From positions 1,957,501 to 2,021,500 of the forward strand of contig NZ_CP039904.1 in NCBI RefSeq assembly GCF_005221385.1: a stretch of DNA of 64,000 bases. Reading direction: 5' to 3'. The first letter of the stretch is position 1, and every line of letters starts with the position of its first letter. The DNA comes from Agrobacterium tumefaciens. GTDB taxonomy: Bacteria > Pseudomonadota > Alphaproteobacteria > Rhizobiales > Rhizobiaceae. Below, in pieces: positions 35,479 through 47,542 of this stretch. The notes beneath the pieces were generated by a model that was not told the DNA's origin, did no database searches, and was given only the letters and a program-made list of their open reading frames with translations. A program made the translations under genes and the position numbers.

Positions 35479-35571
35479 GGCGGCAAAAAAGCGGGTCTTG
35501 AAGCGAATGCCGGTCATCTGGAATAATGGCGCTGCCCGCACCACCGGTGCCGGCATTCTTTCGAGGTGACG

Positions 35572-36216
35572 ATGCGACGACTGGTTTTATGGGGAGTGCT
35601 GATGATGGCCCTTGGCGCAAATGCTGAGGCTTCCGTTCTGGAAGCCGTAACGGCGAAGGATCACGCGAGGCTCGAACAGCTTTTGAAAAACAGTGGCGTC
35701 ACCGAAGAGCGGAACGCGCAGGGCCAGACGCCTCTTCTGGTTGCCGTCTGGCAAAATGATGTGTCGGCGGCACGCCTGCTTCTCGATGCCGGTGCCGATG
35801 TCGATGCCCGCGACAATATCGAGGACAGCCCGTTTCTGGTGGCGGGTGCACAGGGCAGAACCGAGATCCTGCGGATGATCCTGAAAAAGGGCGCAAACCT
35901 TGAAAGCACCAACCGCTTTGGCGGCACCGCCCTCATTCCGGCTGCCGAAAAGGGACATCCGGAAGCCGTTGATATGCTGCTTGCAGCCGGTTTGGATGTC
36001 GATCACGTCAACCGGCTTGGGTGGACGGCCCTGCTTGAAGTCACAATCCTGAGAGATGGCGGGGCGGTATCCCAGCGGATCGTCCGGTCGCTTCTTGCCG
36101 GCGGCGCTGACGTTGCAGTGAAGGATTTTGACGGAAGGACCGCGCTTGCCCATGCCCGCGAAAGAGGGCTTACGGAAATCGTTGCACTGCTTAAGGCCGC
36201 CGGCGCGAAGGACTGA
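35572..36216 (+). CDS. exported ankyrin-repeat protein
   Basis: This 214-residue protein has a signal peptide (MRRLVLWGVLMMALGANAEA) and then about five ankyrin repeats, visible as GQTPLLVAVWQNDVSAARLL, LLDAGADVDARDN, GGTALIPAAEKGHPEAVDML and GRTALAHARERGLTEIVALL. Ankyrin repeats mediate protein contacts; a periplasmic location is implied. The start is ATG 35572 with GAGG 5 bases upstream; an upstream GTG adds two residues. It stands alone, 93 bases after the ABC ATPase and convergent with the histidine kinase gene (30 bases). Its partner is unknown. Confidence 0.88.
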   Translation: MRRLVLWGVLMMALGANAEASVLEAVTAKDHARLEQLLKNSGVTEERNAQGQTPLLVAVWQNDVSAARLLLDAGADVDARDNIEDSPFLVAGAQGRTEILRMILKKGANLESTNRFGGTALIPAAEKGHPEAVDMLLAAGLDVDHVNRLGWTALLEVTILRDGGAVSQRIVRSLLAGGADVAVKDFDGRTALAHARERGLTEIVALLKAAGAKD

Positions 36217-36246: not shown

Positions 36247-38364
36247 TCAGGCCGACCTCTGCGCCAGCCCGGTGCCTGCCGGAAATATCAGCTGAACCTT
36301 CGCCCCTTCACCGGGTTTCGAATTGATATGCGCCTCGCCGCCGCTCTGGCGAACGAAGCCATAGACCATGGCAAGGCCAAGGCCCGCGCCGCCATGGTCT
36401 CCGCGGGTGGTGAAATAGGGCTCGAAGGCCTTGTCCACCGCCTCCGGCGTCATGCCGATCCCCTCGTCGGTGACTGATATCACCAGTGCATCCTTATCGC
36501 AGGTCGCCTCGATTGAAATCAGGCCGCCATCAGGCATGGCAGCCGCCGCATTGAGGCAGAGGTTGAGGATGGACTGCTCGAAGAGGGCGGGGTCGAGCGG
36601 GATTGTGGGAAGATTGTCATCGAGATCGAGCGCGATCCGGCATTTGGGCCCGACCGCGATCTCGAGGATATCGGCCATGCCGCGCAGCAGGTTGGCGACA
36701 TTGATTGAGCTTGGATGGATCGGCTGCTGGCTGCCGATGGTCAACATGCTGCTGGCGAGAGACCGGCCGCGATCCGCCGCCTTGCGGATACGGGCAATGT
36801 GCCGGTTCTGGCGGTCGTTGAACCCGGCCTCGCGCTCCAAAAGCCCCAGACTGCCGGTGATGATGCCGATCATGTTGCCCACCTCATGGCTGACCTGGTG
36901 GGTCATGCGCATGATGCCGTCCAGCCGCTGGGCCTTTACGGCTTCCGCTTCCTGCCGGTCGAGTGCCGTGACATCGCGGGCAAGCAGCACGATGCCGCCA
37001 TCCGGCTGGCGCGACATCGATACTTCGATCACCCGTTCGTCTCCGGTGCGGTGGCGCACAACGGCGCGCTCCATCAACGCGCCCTTTTCGCTCTCGAACG
37101 GCAGCAGCATCGGATCGATTTCCGGGACCGGTTCGACAAACCGGCGGATCGGCAGTTTTCGCGACGAGCCGGAGCGTCCGACCAGTTCGATGATGCGGCG
37201 GTTCATGGTGATCGGCCGGCCGGTTGCATCAAACAGCGCTATGCCCTCATTCATGTTACGGAAGGTCGAGCGGATGGTGCGGGCCGCCGCTTCCGCCGTG
37301 CGCCTGAGGCGCGAGACGCGGTCGACGCTGTCATGAAAGGCGCGGAATGCGTCAAGCAGACGGATCAACTCCGTTTCCGAGCCGCTATAGGAAGGCGGGC
37401 CGACATCCTTTTCCCCTTTGGCAAGCGCATTCATGCCGTTGGAGAGCGCCGCGATCCCGCGCGACACCCGCATTACCGAGCGGATGGAGAGGATAGCCAC
37501 CACCAGAACCAGCAGCGAGGCCACGGCGACGATGACCAGCAGCCGGCTGAGTGCATCGGAGGTGGAGATCAGGTCTTCGTTCAGGCTGCGGGCAACTGCG
37601 TCGCCCTGGGTTTCCGTGACATGGGAGAGGTCGCGCGACACGGTGTGAAGCCGCGACACCGAGGCGCGGATGGCGAACATTTCAAGGAGATAACGGCTCT
37701 GGGCCGCAAAGACCCGCTCATAGGGTTGCATCTCGGCCAGAGGCAAGCGCTCGCCGGGGTAACCCTGCTGACGCGCGGTGGTTTCGGCGACATAACGGCG
37801 GCGCAGTTCGCCCAGCTGGAAAAGACTGTCGGATGCGGAGGCGGCCTGCACGATGCCGTTCATGCGCCGGCGCAGCTCGGGGTCGGCAATGCCGCGACCG
37901 GTGGCGATTTCGCCGAGTGCCGCCGCCGCTTCCGCCTTGTGGGCCTGTGCGGCATCGGCATCCCTGGCGAGATCGAGCGTCTGCGCCCGGATAAGCTGGA
38001 GCAGTTCGACGATGCGTTCGCTCGCAAAGCCGCGTGCTGCCCGCTCCCCGCTGGCTGGCCCGGTCATCTCCAGCAGCAGGTCGACCTGCTGGACCACGGA
38101 GCGGCTTTCGCTGGAAACGCGATAGGGCGAGGCGGCATTCATCAGGAAAGGCGCGCTGGAGACGAGATCGGAGACCTGCCGGGAGACCAGCGACGCCTTG
38201 GCGAGACTGGAAAAAGCCTGCAAGCCATAGGCCGCCATTTCATCGCGGGCGCGCTGCAGGCCATAAATGGCGATGGCCGACAGGCTGAAGACGAGGACGC
38301 AGGTAAAGACGATCGCAAAGGGCAGGCGAAACGCGATCGAGGAAAGGAAGGAACGGCTGATCAC
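36247..38364 (-). CDS. membrane sensor histidine kinase with periplasmic domain and PAS
   Basis: This 705-residue kinase has a transmembrane helix at about 15-35, a helical periplasmic domain of about 240 residues, a second helix (LLVIVAVASLLVLVVAILS), a HAMP-like linker, a PAS-like domain (FRNMNEGIALFDATGRPITM), the phosphoacceptor H493 in HQVSHEVGN, an N-box (NLCLNAAAAM) and G-boxes (DEGIGM, GGAGLGLAM). Large helical periplasmic domains of this kind can sense through a periplasmic binding protein, as in TorS (established for that family). It is translationally coupled to the response regulator gene (4-base overlap) and lies across from two solute-binding-protein genes, which suggests binding-protein-mediated sensing (inference). 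Confidence 0.92.
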   Translation of the reverse strand: MISRSFLSSIAFRLPFAIVFTCVLVFSLSAIAIYGLQRARDEMAAYGLQAFSSLAKASLVSRQVSDLVSSAPFLMNAASPYRVSSESRSVVQQVDLLLEMTGPASGERAARGFASERIVELLQLIRAQTLDLARDADAAQAHKAEAAAALGEIATGRGIADPELRRRMNGIVQAASASDSLFQLGELRRRYVAETTARQQGYPGERLPLAEMQPYERVFAAQSRYLLEMFAIRASVSRLHTVSRDLSHVTETQGDAVARSLNEDLISTSDALSRLLVIVAVASLLVLVVAILSIRSVMRVSRGIAALSNGMNALAKGEKDVGPPSYSGSETELIRLLDAFRAFHDSVDRVSRLRRTAEAAARTIRSTFRNMNEGIALFDATGRPITMNRRIIELVGRSGSSRKLPIRRFVEPVPEIDPMLLPFESEKGALMERAVVRHRTGDERVIEVSMSRQPDGGIVLLARDVTALDRQEAEAVKAQRLDGIMRMTHQVSHEVGNMIGIITGSLGLLEREAGFNDRQNRHIARIRKAADRGRSLASSMLTIGSQQPIHPSSINVANLLRGMADILEIAVGPKCRIALDLDDNLPTIPLDPALFEQSILNLCLNAAAAMPDGGLISIEATCDKDALVISVTDEGIGMTPEAVDKAFEPYFTTRGDHGGAGLGLAMVYGFVRQSGGEAHINSKPGEGAKVQLIFPAGTGLAQRSA

Positions 38365-39107
38365 GGGGAAAGCTCGCCCTCGTCGGTGTGGAGCACATAT
38401 CCCTTGCCGCGCCGCGTCTTGATATGGCGCGGCAGGTCTGGGTTTATCTCGATCTTGCGCCGCAGCCGCAGCACCAGAACATCGACGTTGCGGTCGATAT
38501 AGCGGTCGCTTTCCGAACCCAGCCGGTCGAGGATCTGCGAACGGCTGACGGGCTGGTTTGGTGTTTCGGCGAGAATTTCCAGCAGCGCGAATTCGGCGCT
38601 GGTCAGCGTGCGGCTGCGGTCCGCAAGGCAGACGGCCCGGCGGGCATCGAGATCGATCGCCCAGTCGCCGAGGCGCAGCGCCGTGCGGCCATGGTCACGC
38701 TCGCTGTCCTTTTCCTGTTTCAGCGAGGGGATCGTTCGGCGCAGAACGGCCTTGATCCGTGCCGTCAGTTCGATGGGTTCAAAGGGTTTGACGACATAAT
38801 CGTCGGCGGCCGTTTCCAGACCGAGAACCCGGTCGGCGGCGCTGCCGGCGGCCGTGACCATGACAATGCCGATATCACTATCGACCTTGCCGCGCAGCCG
38901 CTGGGCGAAGGTGCGGCCGGACGTGCCGGGCAGATTGTGATCAACGAGCACCAGCTGCATCCTGTCCCGCGCCAATATCTCGTCCGCTTCCTCGGCGGAG
39001 CGGGCGCAGGTGGGCAGCCAGCCCTCGGCCTCGACGAGGTCCGAGATAAGCTCGGCCATATCAGGATCGTCCTCGACGATCAGAATGCGAACCTTCTGAT
39101 TAAGCAC
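38361..39107 (-). CDS. OmpR-family response regulator
   Basis: This 248-residue regulator has a receiver domain with acidic pair VEDD (residues 11-14), phosphoacceptor D56 (VLVDHNLPG), the T/S region MVTAAGS and the conserved Lys in VVKPFEP, and a C-terminal winged helix (TSAEFALLEILAE ... RNVDVLVLRLRRKIE ... TRRGKGYVL). The start is a GTG at 39107 with GGGAGGAAG upstream. It precedes and overlaps the histidine kinase gene. The divergent importer operon starts 210 bases away and is its probable target. Confidence 0.94.
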   Translation of the reverse strand: MLNQKVRILIVEDDPDMAELISDLVEAEGWLPTCARSAEEADEILARDRMQLVLVDHNLPGTSGRTFAQRLRGKVDSDIGIVMVTAAGSAADRVLGLETAADDYVVKPFEPIELTARIKAVLRRTIPSLKQEKDSERDHGRTALRLGDWAIDLDARRAVCLADRSRTLTSAEFALLEILAETPNQPVSRSQILDRLGSESDRYIDRNVDVLVLRLRRKIEINPDLPRHIKTRRGKGYVLHTDEGELSP

Positions 39108-39186
39108 GGTATCTTCCTCCCGCCATCATCATAGGCGCGGCTGCGGCGATCTTCAAAGGCTCGCTGGTTATCTCCCCCGTCATAAT

Positions 39187-39235
39187 TGTAATATCTGTAA
39201 TCTTGTTCGGCGGTGCAGTGAAAAATTGGTAACCA
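39187..39235. promoter_or_regulatory. candidate response-regulator sites in the divergent region
   Basis: Two direct TGTAAT hexamers lie 9 bases apart (39187-39192 and 39196-39201), and a small perfect dyad TGGT-A-ACCA follows at 39227-39235. OmpR-type regulators bind direct repeats, usually 10-11 bases apart, so the 9-base spacing is a caveat. The region lies in the only AT-rich part of the 210-base gap between regulator and importer. Confidence 0.3.
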
Positions 39236-39317
39236 TTCTTCGATTGCGGTACGGGCCGAATGTGACATGCTGTTTGTGGAGACTGGAACGGGGAGGTTCC
39301 AGGCAGGGAGGCTTTAA

Positions 39318-40346
39318 GTGAAACGATTGACCGCACTTGCGGCGAGCATGGCTTTATGGCTGTGCGGCGCAGGGCATGGCATGGCCGAGCCGAAGTTGAA
39401 CGTCCTGTGCGGCGTCGACGAGGCCTGGTGCGTGGCCATGCAGCGGGCCTTCGAGGCAAGGATGGGCCTTGAGATTTCGATGGTTCGCAGGAGCACAGGC
39501 GAAATTCTCGACCAGATTCGTGCGGAACGATCCCACCCGACAGTCGACGTCTGGTGGGGTGGCACGGGCGATACCCATTTGCAGGCCGGCTCGGAAGGGC
39601 TGCTGGACGAGTATCAGCCCCTGCATCCACAGGACCTGTTGCCCTGGGCGCAGAATTTTTATGCCATGTCCGGATCAAGGTCCGCCGGCATTTATGCCGG
39701 AGCGCTGGGATTTGCCTATAATTCCGAACTGCTCGCCAGAAACAATCTGCCGGCTCCCACCTGCTGGAAGGATCTGGCGAAGGACATTTATCGCGGCCAT
39801 ATCCTGACCGGCAATCCAAACTATTCCGGCACGGCGTTCACCATGCTCGCCACGCTGGTGCAGCTGTTCGGCGAGGAGGAGGCCTTCGGTTTCATGACGA
39901 AACTGAACGGGAATGTCGTCGGTTATACCAAGGTGGGTGCAGCGCCCGTCAAGGCGGCGGCGCGGGGCGAGGTCGTGATCGGGATTTCCTTCATGCATGA
40001 CGCGGTGACCCAGAAGATCGAAGGGTTTCCGCTGGTCATCGTCGCCCCCTGCGAAGGCACCGGTTACGAGATCGGGGCGGTCAGCATCGTCAAGGGCAAC
40101 CGCAATACGGCCCTTGCGCAGGCCTTCGTGGAATTTGCGCTGAGCCCGGAGGGACAGGCGACTGGGGCTGCGGCGGGCCAGAACCAGGTGCCGTCCAACG
40201 CCCGGGCGACATTGCCGCTCACCGCACCCGATATATCGATGATCAAGATGGTGGACTATGACTTCGCCACCTTCGGACAGCCGGAAGAGCGAAGTCGGTT
40301 ATTGAGCCGCTTCGACAGCGAAATCCACCCGAGCCAGACCCAGTAG
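39318..40346 (+). CDS. solute-binding protein 1 of AfuA/iron(III) type, possible sensor partner
   Basis: This 342-residue periplasmic binding protein of family 1 has a signal peptide ending near GHGMA and the motifs VDVWWGGTGDTHLQAG, YSGTAFTMLATLVQLFGEEEA and VKAAARGEVVIGISFMHDA. It is a clear paralogue of the next gene product (341 residues). Family members were annotated as ferric-iron binders, but AfuA of Actinobacillus binds sugar phosphates. GTG 39318 is preceded by AGGGAGG. Being first after the divergent two-component genes, it could be the binding protein that reports to the kinase while the second feeds the transporter (inference). Confidence 0.87.
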   Translation: MKRLTALAASMALWLCGAGHGMAEPKLNVLCGVDEAWCVAMQRAFEARMGLEISMVRRSTGEILDQIRAERSHPTVDVWWGGTGDTHLQAGSEGLLDEYQPLHPQDLLPWAQNFYAMSGSRSAGIYAGALGFAYNSELLARNNLPAPTCWKDLAKDIYRGHILTGNPNYSGTAFTMLATLVQLFGEEEAFGFMTKLNGNVVGYTKVGAAPVKAAARGEVVIGISFMHDAVTQKIEGFPLVIVAPCEGTGYEIGAVSIVKGNRNTALAQAFVEFALSPEGQATGAAAGQNQVPSNARATLPLTAPDISMIKMVDYDFATFGQPEERSRLLSRFDSEIHPSQTQ

Positions 40347-40460
40347 GGCCAAAAACCAACACCTCGAAAAGACAGCGTGCGCGCCGCAGGGCGCCGCGAC
40401 CGGCAGCGCCATGTCCGCGCGCTGCCCAGGAATTCAGACGCAAGCTACAGGAGGATAACC

Positions 40461-41486
40461 ATGCGACTGACGATACTTTCCACCCTGCTTTTTGCCGGCA
40501 CGGCACTGAGCGCCGTTTCCGCGCAGGCGGCGGGCGAACTGAACCTCATCTGCTCGGCCGATGTCGTCATCTGCGAACAGATGAAGGGCGATTTTGAAAA
40601 GTCGCATGACATCAAGGTCAATATGGTGCGCCTGTCTTCTGGCGAAACCTATGCCAAGGTGCGCGCGGAAGCCCGCAACCCGAAGACCGATATCTGGTGG
40701 GCCGGTACCGGCGATCCGCATATGCAGGCGGCCTCGGAAAACCTGACGCTGGAATACAAGTCGCCGATGCTCGACCAGTTGCAGGACTGGGCCGTGAAAC
40801 AGGCCGAAAGCACCGGTTACAGGACTGTCGGCGTTTATGCCGGTGCGCTGGGCTGGGGCTACAACACCGAAATCTTCAAGTCGAAGGGTTACAAGGAGCC
40901 GAAGTGCTGGGCCGACCTGCTGGCGCCGGAACTGAAGGGTGAAATCCAGATCGCCAATCCGAACTCTTCGGGCACCGCCTATACCGCGCTTGCCTCGCTC
41001 GCGCAGATCATGGGTGAAGATCAGGCGATCGACTATCTGAAGAAGCTCAACGTCAATATCTCGCAATATACCAAGTCGGGTTCCGCACCGGTCAAGGCGG
41101 CGGCGCGCGGCGAGACGGCGCTCGGCATCGTCTTCATGCATGATGCGGTGGCGCAGACGGCGGAAGGCTTCCCGGTGAAGTCGATCGCGCCGTGCGAAGG
41201 CACGGGTTACGAAATCGGCTCCATGTCGATCATCAAGGGTGCCCGCAACCTCGACAATGCCAAGACCTGGTACGACTGGGCGCTGAAACCGGAAGTGCAG
41301 TCGCGCATGAAGGACGCCAAGTCCTTCCAGCTTCCCTCCAACAAGACGGCGGAAGTGCCGAAAGAAGCGCCGAAGTTCGAGGATATCAAGCTCATCGACT
41401 ACGACTTCAAGACCTATGGCGATCCGGCCAAGCGCAAGGCGCTTCTGGAACGTTGGGACCGTGAGGTTGGTGCGGTCGCCAACTGA
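40461..41486 (+). CDS. solute-binding protein 2 of AfuA/iron(III) type
   Basis: This 341-residue periplasmic binding protein has a signal peptide (MRLTILSTLLFAGTALSAVSAQA) and aligns along its length with the preceding gene product: DIWWAGTGDPHMQAA, NSSGTAYTALASLAQIMGEDQA, VKAAARGETALGIVFMHDA and CEGTGYEIGSMSIIKGARN. An excellent ribosome binding site (GGAGG, 40450-40454) suggests high expression, as usual for the transport subunit. The gap to the permease gene is 85 bases. Paired Cys residues near the mature N-terminus (LICSADVVICEQM) are shared with its paralogue (LCGVDEAWC). Confidence 0.9.
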   Translation: MRLTILSTLLFAGTALSAVSAQAAGELNLICSADVVICEQMKGDFEKSHDIKVNMVRLSSGETYAKVRAEARNPKTDIWWAGTGDPHMQAASENLTLEYKSPMLDQLQDWAVKQAESTGYRTVGVYAGALGWGYNTEIFKSKGYKEPKCWADLLAPELKGEIQIANPNSSGTAYTALASLAQIMGEDQAIDYLKKLNVNISQYTKSGSAPVKAAARGETALGIVFMHDAVAQTAEGFPVKSIAPCEGTGYEIGSMSIIKGARNLDNAKTWYDWALKPEVQSRMKDAKSFQLPSNKTAEVPKEAPKFEDIKLIDYDFKTYGDPAKRKALLERWDREVGAVAN

Positions 41487-41571
41487 TCTTAACTCCGGCG
41501 ACAGGCATCCCGGCTTTTAAAGCCGGGGTGTCCGCCACTCTCTCATCGGCATGAAATAAGCGAGGTCGGCC

Positions 41572-43803
41572 ATGACACGTGGCAATCGCAGGCTGGACAT
41601 CGTCCTGGCGTTCGGGGCTTTTGCCCTCATTCTTCTTCCCTGGTATCGCATCGAAGGCGGCTTTTTCAGCTTCCGCTGGCTGTCCGGATTTTTCTCCACC
41701 GCTAGCAATGCGCCCGGTGTGCTGCAAATATTGTCCTATGGAAAACCATGGCTTGTCGGCATCGTTCTTTTCTTCCTCGCCGCATGCCTTGTCCGGCCAA
41801 TGCGTGATCCGATGCGCCGGGGTGGGTTGCTTGCCTTTATCGGTGCTGCCGGTCTCGTTTTTCTTGCTTTGCAGGGGCTGGCGATCGGCTTTACCGGCTG
41901 GACATGGACGATCAGCGAAAACCTCTTTGGCATGCTTGCCGATGGTCAGGCGTCCATGGGGGCGGGGGCCGTCGTCATGTCGTTCGTCTTCGTGCTGCTT
42001 TTCGCCTTCGGTCTTGCCGAACGTGGCGTCATGAAAGGCGACGCCTTCGTCGTCGGCGCCATTTCCGTTCTGGTGTTCCTCGTCGCGGTTTTTGTCTTCT
42101 ATCCGATCGGCAGCATGCTGATCGCATCCGTTCAGGATTTCGACGGCTCCTTCAATGCCGATGGCTTTATCCGCAATATCCAGGATCCCGGCATTTGGAG
42201 CCTTGGCTGCGTGGCGGGCGAAGAGCGTTGCGGCGTTGCCTGGCGCACATTGTTTCTGGCCTTGATGACCGCCTTCGGTTCGACCGTGCTCGGTCTCGGC
42301 TTCGCTTTGATCGCCACCCGCACGCGCTTTCCCTTCAAGAAGGGCCTGCGGCTTCTCACCGTTCTGCCGATCATCACGCCGCCTTTTGTTATCGGCCTTG
42401 CTTTGACGCTGCTTTTCGGCCGCGCCGGTGTCGTCACCGAATGGCTTTCCTATCTCTTCGGCATCGAACCGGGCCGCTGGCTTTATGGCATGACCGGCAT
42501 CTGGATCGCACAGGTTCTGTCCTTCACGCCCATCTCGTTTCTGGTGCTGATCGGCGTGGTCGAAGGTGTCAGCCCGTCGATGGAAGAAGCCTCACAGACG
42601 CTGCGCGCCGACCGCTGGCGCACCTTCTGGCGGGTGTCGCTGCCGCTGATGAAGCCCGGTCTCGCCAATGCCTTCCTGATCGGCTTTATCGAGAGCATGG
42701 CGGATTTCGGCAATCCGCTGGTGCTTGGCGGCACGCATGGCGTGCTGTCGACGGAAATCTTCTTTGCTGTCGTCGGCTCGCAGAATGATCCCTCCCGCGC
42801 CGCGGTGCTTGCTATCATCCTCCTGTGCTTCACGCTTTCGGCCTTCCTTGCCCAGCGCTTCTGGCTGGCGGGCAAGAATTTCGCCACGGTGACGGGCAAG
42901 GGCGACAGCGGCGCGCATATTGCCCTGCCACGCGGCCTGTCCATCGGCGTCCACGCGGTCGTGGTGCCGTGGATGATCTTCACCATCGTCGTTTACGGCA
43001 TGATCCTCGTCGGCGGTTTCGTGAAGACCTGGGGTCTCGATAATTCACTGACGCTTGATCATTACATCCGCGCCTTTTCCGTCAGCTTCTCCAACGGCTC
43101 GATTGCCTGGACGGGTGTTGCCTGGAACTCGTTCTGGACGACGATGGAGATCGCGCTGGTTTCGGCGCCGCTCACCGCTGCCGTCGGTCTTCTCACCGCC
43201 TATATCATCGTGCGGCAGAAATTCGCCGGACGGAACCTGTTTGAATTTGCACTGATGATGAGCTTTGCCATTCCCGGTACGGTCATCGGTGTCAGCTACA
43301 TCATGGCCTTCAACCTGCCGCCGGTGGAAATGACGGGCTCGGCGCTGATCCTGATCGCCTGCTTCGTCTTCCGCAACATGCCGGTGGGCGTGCGCGGCGG
43401 CATCGCGGCGATGAGCCAGCTCGACAAGAGCCTCGACGAGGCCTCGCTGACGCTACGGGCCAATAGTTTCCGCACCATCCGCAAGGTCATCCTGCCGCTC
43501 TTGAGGCCCGCAATCACGGCTGCGCTGGTCTATTCCTTCGTGCGCGCCATCACCTCCATCAGCGCCGTCATCTTCCTCGTCAGCGCCCAGTACAACATGG
43601 CGACGTCCTACATCGTCGGCCTCGTCGAAAACGGCGAATATGGTGTGGCGATCGCCTATTCCTCCATGCTGATCGTGGTGATGATCACCGTCATTACCGG
43701 CTTCCAGCTCATTGTCGGTGAGCGACGCCTGCGGCGCGAAAACCGCGTCGCCGGCCTGCCATCCGCTTCCTCCGTTCCTCTTGCCCAGGAGAAAACCGTA
43801 TGA
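41572..43803 (+). CDS. fused double-domain ABC permease (AfuB/FbpB-like)
   Basis: This 743-residue inner-membrane protein carries two permease domains in one chain, as in AfuB/FbpB. Three to four extra helices (about 1-160) precede the first domain. Two EAA loops are evident: EASQTLRADRWRTFWRVSLP near residue 340 and EASLTLRANSFRTIRKVILP near residue 625, each followed by Pro-Gly or Pro-Ala. The protein should form the whole channel with a homodimer of the ATPase encoded next. Its stop overlaps the ATPase start by 4 bases. The N-terminal extension makes it longer than typical FbpB (about 500-700). Confidence 0.92.
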   Translation: MTRGNRRLDIVLAFGAFALILLPWYRIEGGFFSFRWLSGFFSTASNAPGVLQILSYGKPWLVGIVLFFLAACLVRPMRDPMRRGGLLAFIGAAGLVFLALQGLAIGFTGWTWTISENLFGMLADGQASMGAGAVVMSFVFVLLFAFGLAERGVMKGDAFVVGAISVLVFLVAVFVFYPIGSMLIASVQDFDGSFNADGFIRNIQDPGIWSLGCVAGEERCGVAWRTLFLALMTAFGSTVLGLGFALIATRTRFPFKKGLRLLTVLPIITPPFVIGLALTLLFGRAGVVTEWLSYLFGIEPGRWLYGMTGIWIAQVLSFTPISFLVLIGVVEGVSPSMEEASQTLRADRWRTFWRVSLPLMKPGLANAFLIGFIESMADFGNPLVLGGTHGVLSTEIFFAVVGSQNDPSRAAVLAIILLCFTLSAFLAQRFWLAGKNFATVTGKGDSGAHIALPRGLSIGVHAVVVPWMIFTIVVYGMILVGGFVKTWGLDNSLTLDHYIRAFSVSFSNGSIAWTGVAWNSFWTTMEIALVSAPLTAAVGLLTAYIIVRQKFAGRNLFEFALMMSFAIPGTVIGVSYIMAFNLPPVEMTGSALILIACFVFRNMPVGVRGGIAAMSQLDKSLDEASLTLRANSFRTIRKVILPLLRPAITAALVYSFVRAITSISAVIFLVSAQYNMATSYIVGLVENGEYGVAIAYSSMLIVVMITVITGFQLIVGERRLRRENRVAGLPSASSVPLAQEKTV

Positions 43804-44861
43804 TTTCCGTAAAGCCCGGCTCCGTCACTTTTCAGAATGTCCGCAAGACCTTCGGCGCCTTCACCGCCATTCCCGACCTGTCGCTCACCATCGAGCCCGG
43901 CACGCTGGTAACCCTGCTCGGTCCCTCCGGCTGCGGCAAGACGACGACGCTGCGTATGCTGGCAGGTCTTGAACATCCGACCAGCGGCCGCATTCTCATC
44001 GGCGACAAGGATGTGACCATGCTGCCTGCCAATGAGCGCGATGTCTCGATGGTCTTCCAGTCCTATGCGCTTTTCCCGCACATGACGGCGCTCGACAATG
44101 TCGCTTACGGCCTGCAATCCTCGGGATTGCGCAAGGCGGAAGCGCGGGAAAAGGCGGAAGAGGGGTTGAAGCTCGTCGGCCTCGCCGGCATGGGCCATCG
44201 CCTGCCGGCAGAACTTTCCGGCGGCCAGCAGCAGCGCGTCGCGGTTGCCCGCGCTCTGGTGCTGGAGCCGCAGGTATTGCTGCTTGATGAGCCGCTTTCC
44301 AACCTCGATGCCCGCCTTCGCCGCCGGGTGCGTACCGAAATTCGTGAATTGCAGCAGCGGCTGGGGTTCACCGCCGTTTATGTGACGCATGATCAGGACG
44401 AGGCATTGGCCGTTTCGGACAGAATCATTGTGATGAAGGATGGCGAAATCGCCCAGTCGGGTGCGCCGCGCGATCTTTACGAAGCACCGGCCTCAGCCTT
44501 CATCGCCGATTTCATGGGTGAGGCGAATGTCGTCGGCTGTGAGGTGATCAGCATTGAGGGGCCGGATGCGCTGATCCGCGTCGGCGGCATCGATCATCGG
44601 GTTTCGGCGCGCAATGCCCGGCCCGGTCCGGCCAAGCTTGCCGTGCGTCCGGGTTCGATTGCCATCGGCCAGGCAGGCGGGCAAGGGGTTGCCGGCCGGG
44701 TGCTGCACAGCGCCTATCTCGGCGGCCATGTCGAATATGAAGTCGAGACAGATATCGGCACGCTCTTCATCGTCGACCATGCGGTCGAGGTGAGCCTGCC
44801 GCCGCAAAGCGATGTCACGCTCGGCTTCAGGAGCCGGGGTATTGCGCTGATCCAGTCGTGA
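43800..44861 (+). CDS. ABC importer ATP-binding protein (AfuC/FbpC/PotA-like)
   Basis: This 353-residue ATPase has Walker A GPSGCGKTTTLR near residue 43, the Q-loop VFQSYALFPHMT, signature LSGGQQQRVAVARAL, Walker B LLLDEPLSNLD and H-loop YVTHDQDEAL. A C-terminal TOBE regulatory domain follows (about 245-350: ANVVGCEVISIEG, LAVRPGSIAIG, VEYEVETDIG). It is coupled to the permease gene by an ATGA overlap and ends the importer operon. TOBE domains may bind transported ligand or regulatory partners. Confidence 0.94.
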   Translation: MISVKPGSVTFQNVRKTFGAFTAIPDLSLTIEPGTLVTLLGPSGCGKTTTLRMLAGLEHPTSGRILIGDKDVTMLPANERDVSMVFQSYALFPHMTALDNVAYGLQSSGLRKAEAREKAEEGLKLVGLAGMGHRLPAELSGGQQQRVAVARALVLEPQVLLLDEPLSNLDARLRRRVRTEIRELQQRLGFTAVYVTHDQDEALAVSDRIIVMKDGEIAQSGAPRDLYEAPASAFIADFMGEANVVGCEVISIEGPDALIRVGGIDHRVSARNARPGPAKLAVRPGSIAIGQAGGQGVAGRVLHSAYLGGHVEYEVETDIGTLFIVDHAVEVSLPPQSDVTLGFRSRGIALIQS

Positions 44862-44867
44862 CGGGCT

Positions 44868-45068
44868 TCAGTCCTGCGGATCGGGCATGATCCACCAGAA
44901 CAGCTGCACGAGGTCACTCCAGGTGCGGGCGAGATCATCCATCATGGCATTCACCTCCATATAGAGGTGAATGGCCAGAAGCGTGAAAAGCCCCAATAAC
45001 AGCCATGGCCAGAGCGGGCGTCTGCCCGCCGGTTTCGTTTCGTGCTTTTCGTCCTGATTGATGTCCAA
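44868..45068 (-). CDS. small membrane protein, unknown function
   Basis: This 66-residue frame begins with TTG (MDINQDEKHETK) at 45068, 5 bases after GGGAGAT, and contains one strong transmembrane helix (PLWPWLLLGLFTLLAIHLYM), then an amphipathic tail (NAMMDDLARTWSDLVQLFWW). A longer frame to 45185 has poor composition before that point. It converges with the ABC ATPase gene, 6 bases apart. I do not recognise a family. The helix and the sensible ribosome binding site argue for a real gene, but a rare start lowers confidence. Confidence 0.45.
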   Translation of the reverse strand: MDINQDEKHETKPAGRRPLWPWLLLGLFTLLAIHLYMEVNAMMDDLARTWSDLVQLFWWIMPDPQD

Positions 45069-45255
45069 TCGCCATCTCCCCGTGACCTTGAGACCTACGA
45101 TCAAAACCGCGCGGCTGCAACCGGTCGTCTGGAGGCGCGCGGCCACGTCCTCGCCATGAAGTGCGGCGCCCTGCCACAAAAACACCCAGATTCATTCAGC
45201 CGCAGTTCACCCGCCGGGGCGCTAAATCCCGACATCCCATAAGGAGGGAGATGAC

Positions 45256-45594
45256 ATGCGTAAGATGATTTTTGGCGCAGGAATGATACTCAGCGCCCTG
45301 TTCGGCACCGGCGCGAACGCCATGCCCGTGGGTCAGCCATCTGCACCCGCGACATCCAATGTTCAGACCGTCGACTATGCCTGCGGACGTGGCTTTCATC
45401 TGTCGCCGCGCGGCTATTGCCGTCCAAACGGCCCGCCGCGTTATGAGCGCGGCTGGGACAGGCGCGACCGCTGGGAAGGCCGCCGCGAATGGCGCGAACG
45501 TCAGGCCCGCAGAGAATGGCGGGAACGGCGAGACCGCCGCGACTGGCGGGAACACCGTGAATGGCGTGACCGTCGCGATTATTATCGCTGGTAA
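45256..45594 (+). CDS. exported Arg/Trp-rich small protein with GCG-CRPN motif
   Basis: This 112-residue protein has a signal peptide (MRKMIFGAGMILSALFGTGANA), a short conserved cysteine motif (CGRGFHLSPRGYCRPNG, the GCG/CRPN type) and a C-terminal tail of repeated Trp-Arg units (GREWRERQ, REWRERR, RDWREHR, EWRDRR). The two cysteines could form a disulfide after export. The highly basic repeated tail could bind nucleic acid or anionic envelope polymers (inference). It is short, abundant-looking (strong AAGGAGGGAG before the start region) and followed directly by an intrinsic terminator. Function unknown. Confidence 0.82.
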   Translation: MRKMIFGAGMILSALFGTGANAMPVGQPSAPATSNVQTVDYACGRGFHLSPRGYCRPNGPPRYERGWDRRDRWEGRREWRERQARREWRERRDRRDWREHREWRDRRDYYRW

Positions 45595-45600
45595 TCGGCC

Positions 45601-45629
45601 AGGCCCTCTCTTAACCGGGAGGGCCTTTC
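45601..45629 (+). terminator. intrinsic terminator after the Arg/Trp-rich protein gene
   Basis: AGGCCCTC and GAGGGCCT form a perfect 8-bp stem around a 10-base loop, followed by TTTC. It starts 6 bases after the stop codon. Confidence 0.75.
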
Positions 45630-45753
45630 TCCTGTCGTACATCATGCCTTTGTCTGCCGACCCACGGCTCAATTCCCGATTCAACTGGAATTGAGGAAAC
45701 CTCGGCGGTGCTCGCGGGTTAACCCGGGATGTCGACATTCAAAGGAGGATACC

Positions 45754-46449
45754 ATGAACATTTCAAGGCGTAGCATTCTGGCAGCCGGTGCGGTCACCGC
45801 CGCCGCCACCATTTTCCCCCGTCCGTACGTGGCGCATGCCGCATTGCCGCTGGCGCAGCCACCGCTCCCGTTTGCCCAAGCCGATCTTGCGCCCGTCATT
45901 TCCGAAAAAACAGTTGGCCTACATTACGGTAAACACCACAAGGCCTATTACGACAAGCTGAACACGCTGGCAGCCGGCACACGTTATGCCGACATGGCAC
46001 TGGTGGAAATCGTCACCGAATCTGCAAAATCGAAGGACGCTGACGATATCAAGATTTTCAACAACGCCGCTCAGGCGTGGAACCACGTTGCCTATTGGGA
46101 TCAGTTCGTTCCCGGCGGACCCAACCGGCCGACCGGCGATCTAGCGGCCCAGGTCAACGAAACCTTCGGCGACTATGAAGGCTTCATCAAAAGGGCGGTG
46201 GATGTTTCCGACACGGTCTTCGGTACCGGCTGGGTATGGCTGACACGCGGCGACGATAACAAGCTTGCGCTCATCGGATATGAAGACGGCAAGAACCCGG
46301 TCGCCGTCGGTCGTCCCGCCTACCTGGGCATCGATATCTGGGAACACGCCTATTACGTCGATTATGAAAATCGCAAGCCCGAACATATCCGCGCCGTGCT
46401 GGACAAGCTGGTGAACTGGCGGGTCGTCGAAGAACGCGTCAAAGCCTGA
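45754..46449 (+). CDS. sodB: Tat-exported Fe/Mn superoxide dismutase
   Basis: This 231-residue Fe/Mn superoxide dismutase converts superoxide to O2 and H2O2. Metal ligands are H57 (LHYGKHH), H111 (AWNHVAYWD), D194 and H198 (LGIDIWEHAYY). Unlike cytoplasmic SodB it begins with a twin-arginine signal (NISRRSILAAGAV, R5-R6) with cleavage near AHA, so the folded metalloenzyme is exported to the periplasm. A. tumefaciens is known to have a periplasmic SodB isoform (SodBIII), and this is probably that gene (from memory). The ATG at 45754 has AAAGGAGG upstream. It is monocistronic. Confidence 0.93.
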   Translation: MNISRRSILAAGAVTAAATIFPRPYVAHAALPLAQPPLPFAQADLAPVISEKTVGLHYGKHHKAYYDKLNTLAAGTRYADMALVEIVTESAKSKDADDIKIFNNAAQAWNHVAYWDQFVPGGPNRPTGDLAAQVNETFGDYEGFIKRAVDVSDTVFGTGWVWLTRGDDNKLALIGYEDGKNPVAVGRPAYLGIDIWEHAYYVDYENRKPEHIRAVLDKLVNWRVVEERVKA

Positions 46450-46552
46450 GACCGGTACACTCGTCCCCTCCCGTAAACACCAATGGCTTGCCCCGAGGTG
46501 CTTTTGAGCTACTATGCCGGCATGGCGGGGAGGCCATGTTACAGGAGGGTTC

Positions 46553-47542
46553 ATGAATTACCGGTTTTCGAAACGGCGCATGGTGTTGAAGCTTGCCGCT
46601 ACGGCAGCTTCTTTTTGCATGCTGGGAATGACGGCGAGCGCCGAGGGTTTTCCCGATCGGACCATTACGCTGGTCGTGCCTTTCGCTGCGGGCGGCTCCA
46701 CCGATGTGGTGGCGCGTGTCATCGCGCAGAAGATGGGCGATGAGCTTGGCCATCAGATCGTTGTTGAAAATGTCGCCGGCGCCGGTGGCAATCTCGGCGC
46801 CGACCGTGTCGCCCGGGCAGAGCCGGACGGCTATACGATCCTGATGGGCACGGTTGCGACCCATGCGCTCAACCCGCTTATCCTCAAAACAAAGCCTTAC
46901 GATCCGGAAAAGGATTTCGCCCCGGTTTCCTTGCTGGTGGTGGTGCCGAATGTGCTGGTCGTCAATCCGAAGCTCAACGTCAACAGCGTTGCGGAACTGA
47001 TTGCGCTTCTCAAGGCCGAGCCGGATAAATATGCCTATGCATCTTCCGGCAATGGCACGCCGCTGCATCTTTCAGGCGAACTGTTCAAGAGCATGGCCGG
47101 TGTCAGCATGCAGCATGTTCCCTATAAGGGAGCAGGCCCGGCGCTCAACGATCTTCTCGGCAACCAGATTTCGATCATGTTCGACAATCTGCCGTCGTCA
47201 TCAGGCCACATCAAGTCCGGAACATTGCGGGCGCTTGGTGTGACAACCACTGAGCGCGCTTCATCCTTCCCGGATATGCCGACCATTGCCGAGACAGTGC
47301 CGGGTTATGAAACCTACACCTGGAATGCGCTCTTTGCGCCTGCCGGCACGCCGGCCGACGCGATCGATAAGCTCAATGCCGCCGCCAAGAAAGCGCTTGC
47401 CGATCCGAATGTGGCCGCGCGCATGGCGGAGTTCAGCGCCAAGATCGTTGCTTCGTCACCCGATGAGCTGAAAAGCCACGTTGCGGCCGAAATCGCCAAG
47501 TGGGAACCGGTCGTCAAAAATGCAAATGTGCAGATGGACTGA
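46553..47542 (+). CDS. tripartite tricarboxylate (TctC/Bug) type binding protein, orphan
   Basis: This 329-residue periplasmic binding protein is of the Bug/TctC family, with a signal peptide (residues 1-31, containing SKRRMVLKLAATAA, slightly Tat-like) and the hallmark ITLVVPFAAGGSTDVVAR, ENVAGAGGNLGADRVARAEPDGYT and HVPYKGAGPALNDLLGNQI. These proteins bind carboxylates or aromatic acids. No TctA or TctB membrane genes are nearby, so it is an orphan as often seen for Bug proteins, perhaps a receptor or partner of a remote transporter. The ATG at 46553 has AGGAGGGT upstream. Confidence 0.9.
   Translation: MNYRFSKRRMVLKLAATAASFCMLGMTASAEGFPDRTITLVVPFAAGGSTDVVARVIAQKMGDELGHQIVVENVAGAGGNLGADRVARAEPDGYTILMGTVATHALNPLILKTKPYDPEKDFAPVSLLVVVPNVLVVNPKLNVNSVAELIALLKAEPDKYAYASSGNGTPLHLSGELFKSMAGVSMQHVPYKGAGPALNDLLGNQISIMFDNLPSSSGHIKSGTLRALGVTTTERASSFPDMPTIAETVPGYETYTWNALFAPAGTPADAIDKLNAAAKKALADPNVAARMAEFSAKIVASSPDELKSHVAAEIAKWEPVVKNANVQMD

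What the first reader, a model, noticed from the sequence alone, without database searches (positions are those of the whole stretch)
36247..44861. Two-component system facing an AfuABC-like importer with two paralogous binding proteins
Seen directly: an OmpR-type regulator and a kinase with a periplasmic domain of about 240 residues diverge from an operon of two same-family binding proteins (342 and 341 residues), a fused permease and an ATPase. The paralogues share the same motifs, including paired Cys near the mature N-terminus. Importers normally need one binding protein. The first gene (GTG start) may encode a sensor adaptor that reports ligand to the kinase, the second (stronger ribosome binding site) the transport subunit. 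AfuA relatives carry sugar phosphates rather than iron, so the ligand may be a phosphorylated sugar or related anion.
Basis: partly seen in the sequence, partly recalled or inferred. Interest (0 to 1): 0.72.

Follow-up and report, generated by a model that had tools for sequence, protein, structure and literature searches.

The report
Sugar-phosphate-type importer with separate sensor protein
A soil bacterium's uptake system for a probably phosphorylated nutrient carries two look-alike binding proteins, and comparison of over a hundred related gene clusters indicates that one feeds the pump while the other belongs to the alarm system that switches the pump on; the general arrangement is known from other bacteria.

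Summary
Observation confirmed: HK (705 aa) and OmpR-type RR diverge from SBP1-SBP2-fused permease-ATPase; both SBPs are AfuA relatives, 46% identical. The layout is conserved: among 151 genomes the 34 with SBP1 are the 34 with this HK, all with six genes in order; 32 of 33 named loci repeat it, the 33rd being a contig fragment. Related importers without this HK-RR have a single other SBP, often with a LacI-type regulator. SBP1 varies with HK and RR, SBP2 with permease and ATPase (partial correlation with the HK sensor domain 0.80 versus 0.14). Fifteen loci have a TCS and one SBP; SBP1 groups with that SBP, not SBP2, with support from strong to weak. Thirteen of 19 AfuA contact positions, with the sugar-phosphate triad, are invariant in both SBPs. 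The HK sensor domain is all-helical, nearest TorS, which reads a binding protein. So the sensor-adaptor idea is well supported by inference, not experiment. A sensing SBP plus a transport SBP beside a TCS is known (CuaD/CuaSR and others), and one look-alike (AgtS) failed binding tests. New member of a known kind.

The parts
36247..38364 (-). Sensor histidine kinase: TM1, about 240-residue all-helical periplasmic domain (residues about 37-275), TM2, PAS, DHp and ATPase domain; no receiver domain found
   Evidence: HATPase_c 7e-21, PAS_7 1e-9, HisKA 3e-4 and below its cut-off; AlphaFold2, all helical; TorS/McpS/PilJ-type matches
38361..39107 (-). OmpR-family response regulator, 4-base overlap with the HK gene
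   Evidence: Response_reg 3e-21, Trans_reg_C 9e-21
39108..39317 (.). Divergent intergenic region with conserved direct repeat GTAA-N5-GTAA (39188-39191 and 39197-39200) and GTAACC (39229-39234); proposed RR operator (inference)
   Evidence: GTAA-N5-GTAA in 49 of 52 orthologous regions, dinucleotide-shuffled mean 0.03; GTAACC in 48 of 52; the spacing was found post hoc
39128..39156 (-). Promoter-like site for RR-HK (TTGAAG-17-TATGAT)
   Evidence: 1 found, 1.0 expected in shuffles, so weak alone; hexamer columns partly conserved
39318..40346 (+). SBP1, AfuA-family binding protein, proposed sensing subunit; GTG start
   Evidence: (8x1a E 6e-77, AfuA 4r72 E 5e-76)
40461..41486 (+). SBP2, AfuA-family binding protein, proposed transport subunit; ATG start
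   Evidence: (AfuA 4r72 E 4e-93)
41572..43803 (+). Fused two-domain ABC permease
   Evidence: BPD_transp_1, two stretches; PhnU2 272 bits, below cut-off 593
43800..44861 (+). ABC ATPase with TOBE_2

Best explanation
It is a three-component sensing system joined to its own importer. Shown by sequence: HK, RR, SBP1, SBP2, permease, ATPase in a fixed divergent layout. Inferred: SBP1 binds a phosphorylated (probably sugar-phosphate-like) ligand in the periplasm and docks on the TorS-like helical sensor domain of the HK; the HK phosphorylates the OmpR-type RR; RR-P binds the GTAA repeats in the intergenic region and activates SBP1-SBP2-permease-ATPase. SBP2 binds the same or a similar ligand and delivers it to the permease. 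The sensor module {HK, RR, SBP1} and the importer module {SBP2, permease, ATPase, often a phosphatase} have separate histories; in related importers the sensor module is absent and a LacI-type regulator often stands in its place.
Confidence: 0.72

Rival explanations
1. Both SBPs are transport subunits for the same permease with different ligand specificity or affinity; the HK senses something directly, not through an SBP.
For: Both SBPs keep the AfuA-type pocket and stand in one operon before the permease; tandem SBPs without a TCS found exist in 5 loci; the AgtS precedent shows neighbouring SBPs need not bind the kinase (PMC11113362).
Against: In the sets examined SBP1 is never found without the HK-RR pair although importers with other SBPs are; its distances follow HK/RR, not the permease; N73 and P86, present in all 76 other SBPs compared (52 SBP2, 24 single) and in AfuA, are lost in most or all of 52 SBP1.
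Confidence: 0.15
2. SBP2 (or both) is the signalling partner, as in systems where one SBP does transport and signalling; SBP1 is redundant.
For: In 15 related loci a TCS faces an importer with a single SBP, which must do both jobs if an SBP signals at all.
Against: That single SBP groups with SBP1, not SBP2, in 4 of 4 trees, with support from strong to weak; SBP2 shows little or no excess correlation with the HK sensor domain (0.14; -0.23 in the thinned set).
Confidence: 0.08
3. It is a ferric-iron importer, as its AfuABC annotation in Agrobacterium implies.
For: Names: Agrobacterium afuABC (atu4784-4786) was read as iron transport in a tea co-cultivation study (PMC9138961 passages), and 8x1a, the best PDB match of SBP1, was deposited as an iron(III)-compound-binding protein (its ligand was not looked into). 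AfuA itself was deposited under an Fe3+ name though shown to bind sugar phosphates.
Against: After 8x1a the best relatives are the sugar-phosphate protein AfuA and the pyridoxal-phosphate protein P5PA (E 5e-76 and 2e-60 for SBP1), while ferric-binding proteins such as HitA come at 1e-10 or weaker (one search likewise); the AfuA sugar-phosphate triad is kept; phosphatase genes near relatives.
Confidence: 0.04

Closest known systems
CuaDSR / CuaABC, Ruminiclostridium cellulolyticum (PMC10384115: abstract and discussion read)
   Same: A dedicated sensing SBP (CuaD) works with a TCS, a second SBP (CuaA) serves the ABC transporter that the TCS induces; the discussion names two more two-SBP cases (Clostridium beijerinckii, Geobacillus stearothermophilus) and two one-SBP cases (Vibrio cholerae chitin, Bordetella pertussis citrate)
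   Different: Cellobiose; here both SBPs are AfuA-family and in one operon
HptASR, Staphylococcus aureus (PMC8774646 passage read; PDB 6lkg, 6lki)
   Same: SBP HptA reports glucose-6-phosphate to a kinase; these PDB chains are distant sequence relatives of both SBPs (E 1e-7 and 5e-10)
   Different: Controls the antiporter UhpT; the HptS sensor is a double PDC domain (PMC8534201 table), not helical; one SBP
TorT/TorS
   Same: All-helical periplasmic sensor that reads a binding protein; best Foldseek match of the HK domain
   Different: TorS responds to TMAO through TorT (PMC8534201 passages); TorT is of another SBP class and TorS a hybrid kinase (recalled)
AfuABC of Actinobacillus/Citrobacter, and P5PA (PMC4546632, PMC8427247 passages)
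   Same: SBP family, 13 of 19 contact positions, importer architecture
   Different: One SBP; no TCS is named as its regulator in the passages read, though the island with afuABC in EHEC also holds a fucose-sensing TCS; pocket positions 11, 36 and 186 differ here, so the ligand may differ
AgtSR with PA0602 and AgtABCD, Pseudomonas aeruginosa (PMC11113362 passages)
   Same: TCS next to an ABC operon with two homologous SBPs (60% identical), one of them between the TCS and the transporter operon
   Different: Other ligands (GABA, 5-aminovalerate), SBP_bac_3-type sensor domain; SBP-kinase binding tested and not seen
PgtB/PgtC (phosphoglycerate sensing, recalled)
   Same: Kinase with an SBP-like partner for phosphorylated compounds (recalled)
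   Different: The HK matches the PgtB model only in its kinase part (38.7 bits, cut-off 1000)

Membership tests
AfuA-type sugar-phosphate SBP | Sugar-coordinating triad H205, D206, E229 (used as the search motif in PMC4546632) | tested here: met
   triad in all 66 SBP1 and 66 SBP2 rows (52 distinct loci) and in 24 of 24 single SBPs; the phosphate-site residue S37 is Thr or Asn in SBP1
AfuA-type sugar-phosphate SBP | Binds hexose/heptose phosphates | not testable with these tools
   Needs ITC
2-aminoethylphosphonate transporter (NCBIfam phnS2/PhnU2/PhnT2) | Curated equivalog score | tested here: not met
   184 and 199 bits against 393; 272 against 593; 369 against 458
Three-component system with dedicated sensing SBP | A second SBP conserved with the kinase and separate from the transport SBP | tested here: met
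Three-component system with dedicated sensing SBP | SBP binds the kinase sensor domain and is needed for induction | not testable with these tools
   No complex prediction or bench work available
TorS-like helical bimodular sensor domain | Two stacked helical bundles in the periplasm | tested here: inconclusive
PgtB kinase | NCBIfam NF047794 over cut-off | tested here: not met
   model positions 516-653 only, 38.7 bits against 1000

The most novel reading that the evidence does not exclude
The sensor module {HK, RR, sensing SBP} is a transferable cassette: derived from TCS-coupled single-SBP importers (15 loci here), it was joined to a LacI-regulated importer of the same family and replaced the LacI protein, moving sensing from the cytoplasm to the periplasm; freed from transport, its SBP became a fast-evolving dedicated sensor beside the importer's own SBP.
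Probability: 0.4. Interest if true: 0.6.

Novelty: new member of a known kind. Interest (0 to 1): 0.45.

Why it matters
It gives a natural series (TCS with one SBP, TCS with two SBPs, LacI with one SBP, on one importer family and partly within one genus) in which the split of a binding protein into transport and sensing roles can be tested directly. It also suggests that Agrobacterium genes read as iron importers in an expression study are more likely importers of a phosphorylated compound, perhaps plant-derived, under periplasmic sensing.

Tried and rejected
Iron importer and 2-aminoethylphosphonate importer: not favoured on scores, though 8x1a bears an iron name. PgtB membership: rejected. 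Simple recent tandem duplication: a clade of SBP1 and SBP2 from two-SBP loci alone is rejected (AU p 0.0015), but an older local duplication (SBP1 with SBP2-type importers, without class I) is not (p 0.20). SBP1 with class I SBPs: SH-aLRT 96 and 100, 78.8 on a reduced set from which five long or odd loci were dropped, 92/58 in the careful tree of 46 rows; so unsettled. Permease tree (69 of 70 rows; one split class I permease left out): class I and class II permeases as one clade rejected, p 1e-56; that alone also fits ordinary descent, since class I is sister to class II plus LacI-type.

HK-type search with a mixed sensor alignment over 385 genomes of the class found the window's own full match and three partial ones: the sensor domain diverges too fast. 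First repeat pattern (GTAA-N6-GTAA) gave 0 of 52; spacings 3 to 8 were then tried and N5 found, so that spacing is post hoc; class I regions show a related but different repeat (5 or 6 of 14; L195 left out for an unusable start). Terminators: nothing above chance. The phosphatase is absent beside the window operon; the best own-genome match is 40%.

Literature: ten searches in the held open-access library listed no paper on a TCS-linked two-SBP AfuA-type importer; this says nothing beyond those searches. Moore and Hendrickson on TorS-TorT was not held.

Sampling limits: the 114 loci are 58 of 58 genomes with hits; 18 of the 33 loci (14 dropped as duplicates by equal contig length, L141 dropped because its fragment holds no SBP); and 38 of 40 regions picked out of the 88 hit genomes by identity to a class I SBP or by having two hits (L201, L202 dropped as duplicates). 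Neighbours were recognised only by similarity to the window's genes and to a few chosen regulator, phosphatase and TCS genes, so other regulators or diverged TCS genes could be missed. The genome searches scored at most 14 candidates a genome or 5. One SBP1 locus of 56 lacked a usable gene and was left out. An earlier count said 31 SBP1-specific positions; recounted it is 29.
Full report
What is there. The window lies on a 2.15-Mb contig of a 5.5-Mb genome whose near relatives are mostly named Agrobacterium. Among solved structures SBP2 matches the sugar-phosphate protein AfuA best; SBP1 matches 8x1a (deposited as an iron(III)-compound-binding protein, ligand not looked into) and AfuA about equally; the pyridoxal-phosphate protein P5PA follows, and ferric-binding proteins such as HitA come far behind. 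NCBIfam models for 2-aminoethylphosphonate transport match only far below their cut-offs.

Conservation. SBP1 searched in 151 genomes: 34 carry it at 64-100% identity (next best 53%); the HK sensor half: the same 34 at 56-100%, plus one 25% match; SBP2: those 34 plus 24 genomes with a single SBP at 50-88%. All 34 have HK-RR facing SBP1-SBP2-permease-ATPase. A named-genome scan returned 33 loci, from Agrobacterium, Rhizobium, Ensifer, Neorhizobium, Pannonibacter and unnamed Rhizobiales; 32 have the full layout and the other is a 3.5-kb contig.

Classes. Widening to the order and reading 40 further regions gave, after removal of duplicates, 114 loci: 56 with TCS and two SBPs (class II, the window); 15 with a TCS facing a single SBP (class I; a C-terminal receiver domain above the Pfam cut-off in 3 of 5 kinases tested and below it in the other 2); 38 other single-SBP loci, of which 15 have a LacI-type regulator, 29 an inositol-monophosphatase-family gene in the fetched region and 3 a TCS in another arrangement (L074, L213, L225); and 5 with tandem SBPs and no TCS found (L203-L207). 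LacI is seen in none of the 56 and none of the 15; the phosphatase in 39 of 56 and none of 15. Within the window's own genus six sampled species have the LacI version (L061-L066), and three had no match to either SBP at the thresholds used (G011, G019, G020).

Two modules. Over 55 two-SBP loci, protein distances form two blocks: SBP1, HK, RR (r 0.91-0.94) and SBP2, permease, ATPase (0.92-0.95), with 0.71-0.88 across. With permease and ATPase controlled, SBP1-HK sensor is 0.80 and SBP2-HK sensor 0.14; in 21 thinned loci 0.76 and -0.23, with 0 of 999 permutations reaching the first. Mean distance is 0.24 for SBP1, 0.10 for SBP2 and 0.30 for the HK sensor domain. Since each block is also a block of neighbouring genes, linkage may contribute; with RR and the HK cytoplasmic part also controlled, SBP1-HK sensor falls to 0.32. 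Trees place SBP2 with single SBPs of LacI-type loci (99-100, 7 of the 9 rows labelled LacI and two more rows that one search showed to have LacI fall there, L211 and L213 do not), and SBP1 with class I SBPs in four of four trees with support from strong to weak; an older local duplication is not excluded (AU p 0.20). Permeases of class II belong with LacI-type importers (100). Sensor domains of class I and II kinases are homologous by profile comparison (one pair compared, probability 98, E 1.7e-13, 162 columns).

Binding pockets. Of 19 AfuA contact positions named in PMC4546632 and PMC8427247 (passages read), 13 are invariant in all SBP1 and SBP2 rows, including His205, Asp206 and Glu229, whose mutation abolishes binding in AfuA; positions 11, 36 and 186 differ from AfuA in both, 9 and 184 vary, and 37 is Thr or Asn in SBP1. 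So both probably bind a phosphorylated compound, likely the same or similar, but not necessarily AfuA's ligands. SBP1 has 29 positions conserved against the 76 other SBPs compared, among them an invariant Phe114 followed mostly by Phe or Tyr, a candidate contact patch (inference).

Control region. Between RR and SBP1, GTAA-N5-GTAA is kept in 49 of 52 loci (0.03 expected) and GTAACC in 48 of 52; a promoter-like site for RR-HK overlaps partly conserved hexamers. The operator role is inference.

Comparison. Sensing SBP plus transport SBP beside a TCS is known: CuaD/CuaA, and two cases named in that paper's discussion (PMC10384115). Sugar-phosphate sensing through an SBP is known: HptASR (PMC8774646 passage). 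The opposite outcome is also known: AgtS bound neither neighbouring SBP (PMC11113362 passages). Hence a new member of a known kind, with an unusually clear evolutionary record. A published study that calls Agrobacterium afuABC (atu4784-4786) an iron system (PMC9138961 passages) may need rereading; the link to this locus is by recall: contig G006:C2 (2,075,577 bases) has the length I remember for the linear chromosome of strain C58, and the locus position there fits these gene numbers, but this was not tested.

Noticed in passing
L203-L207 (regions of G845, G821, G763, G676, G601): Tandem AfuA-type binding proteins before one permease with no two-component genes found in the fetched region; an SBP doubling without TCS (open reading frames beside two of the five looked at).
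   Followed up: partly
L074:14688-18085 and L213:12522-15967: A hybrid kinase gene downstream of the importer ATPase on one strand and an OmpR-type regulator on the other, their 3' ends overlapping by 43 bases in both loci; odd geometry for a cognate pair.
   Followed up: no
L061-L066: Six relatives of the window's genus with the SBP2-type importer beside a divergent LacI-type gene and a phosphatase gene instead of HK-RR-SBP1: the importer without the sensor module.
   Followed up: yes
window 44861-47542: The Inositol_P phosphatase found near 39 of 56 two-SBP loci is missing here and in close relatives; superoxide dismutase-like and TctC-like genes follow instead (the two names judged by eye).
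   Followed up: partly
window 35566-36216: An ankyrin-repeat-like protein gene with a signal-peptide-like start ends 30 bases from the end of the HK gene, convergent (judged by eye).
   Followed up: no
literature: Agrobacterium atu4784-4786 (afuABC) rise during tea-leaf co-cultivation and were read as iron limitation (PMC9138961 passages); atu4782 is listed among genes changed in a vtlR mutant (PMC7486931 passage).
   Followed up: partly
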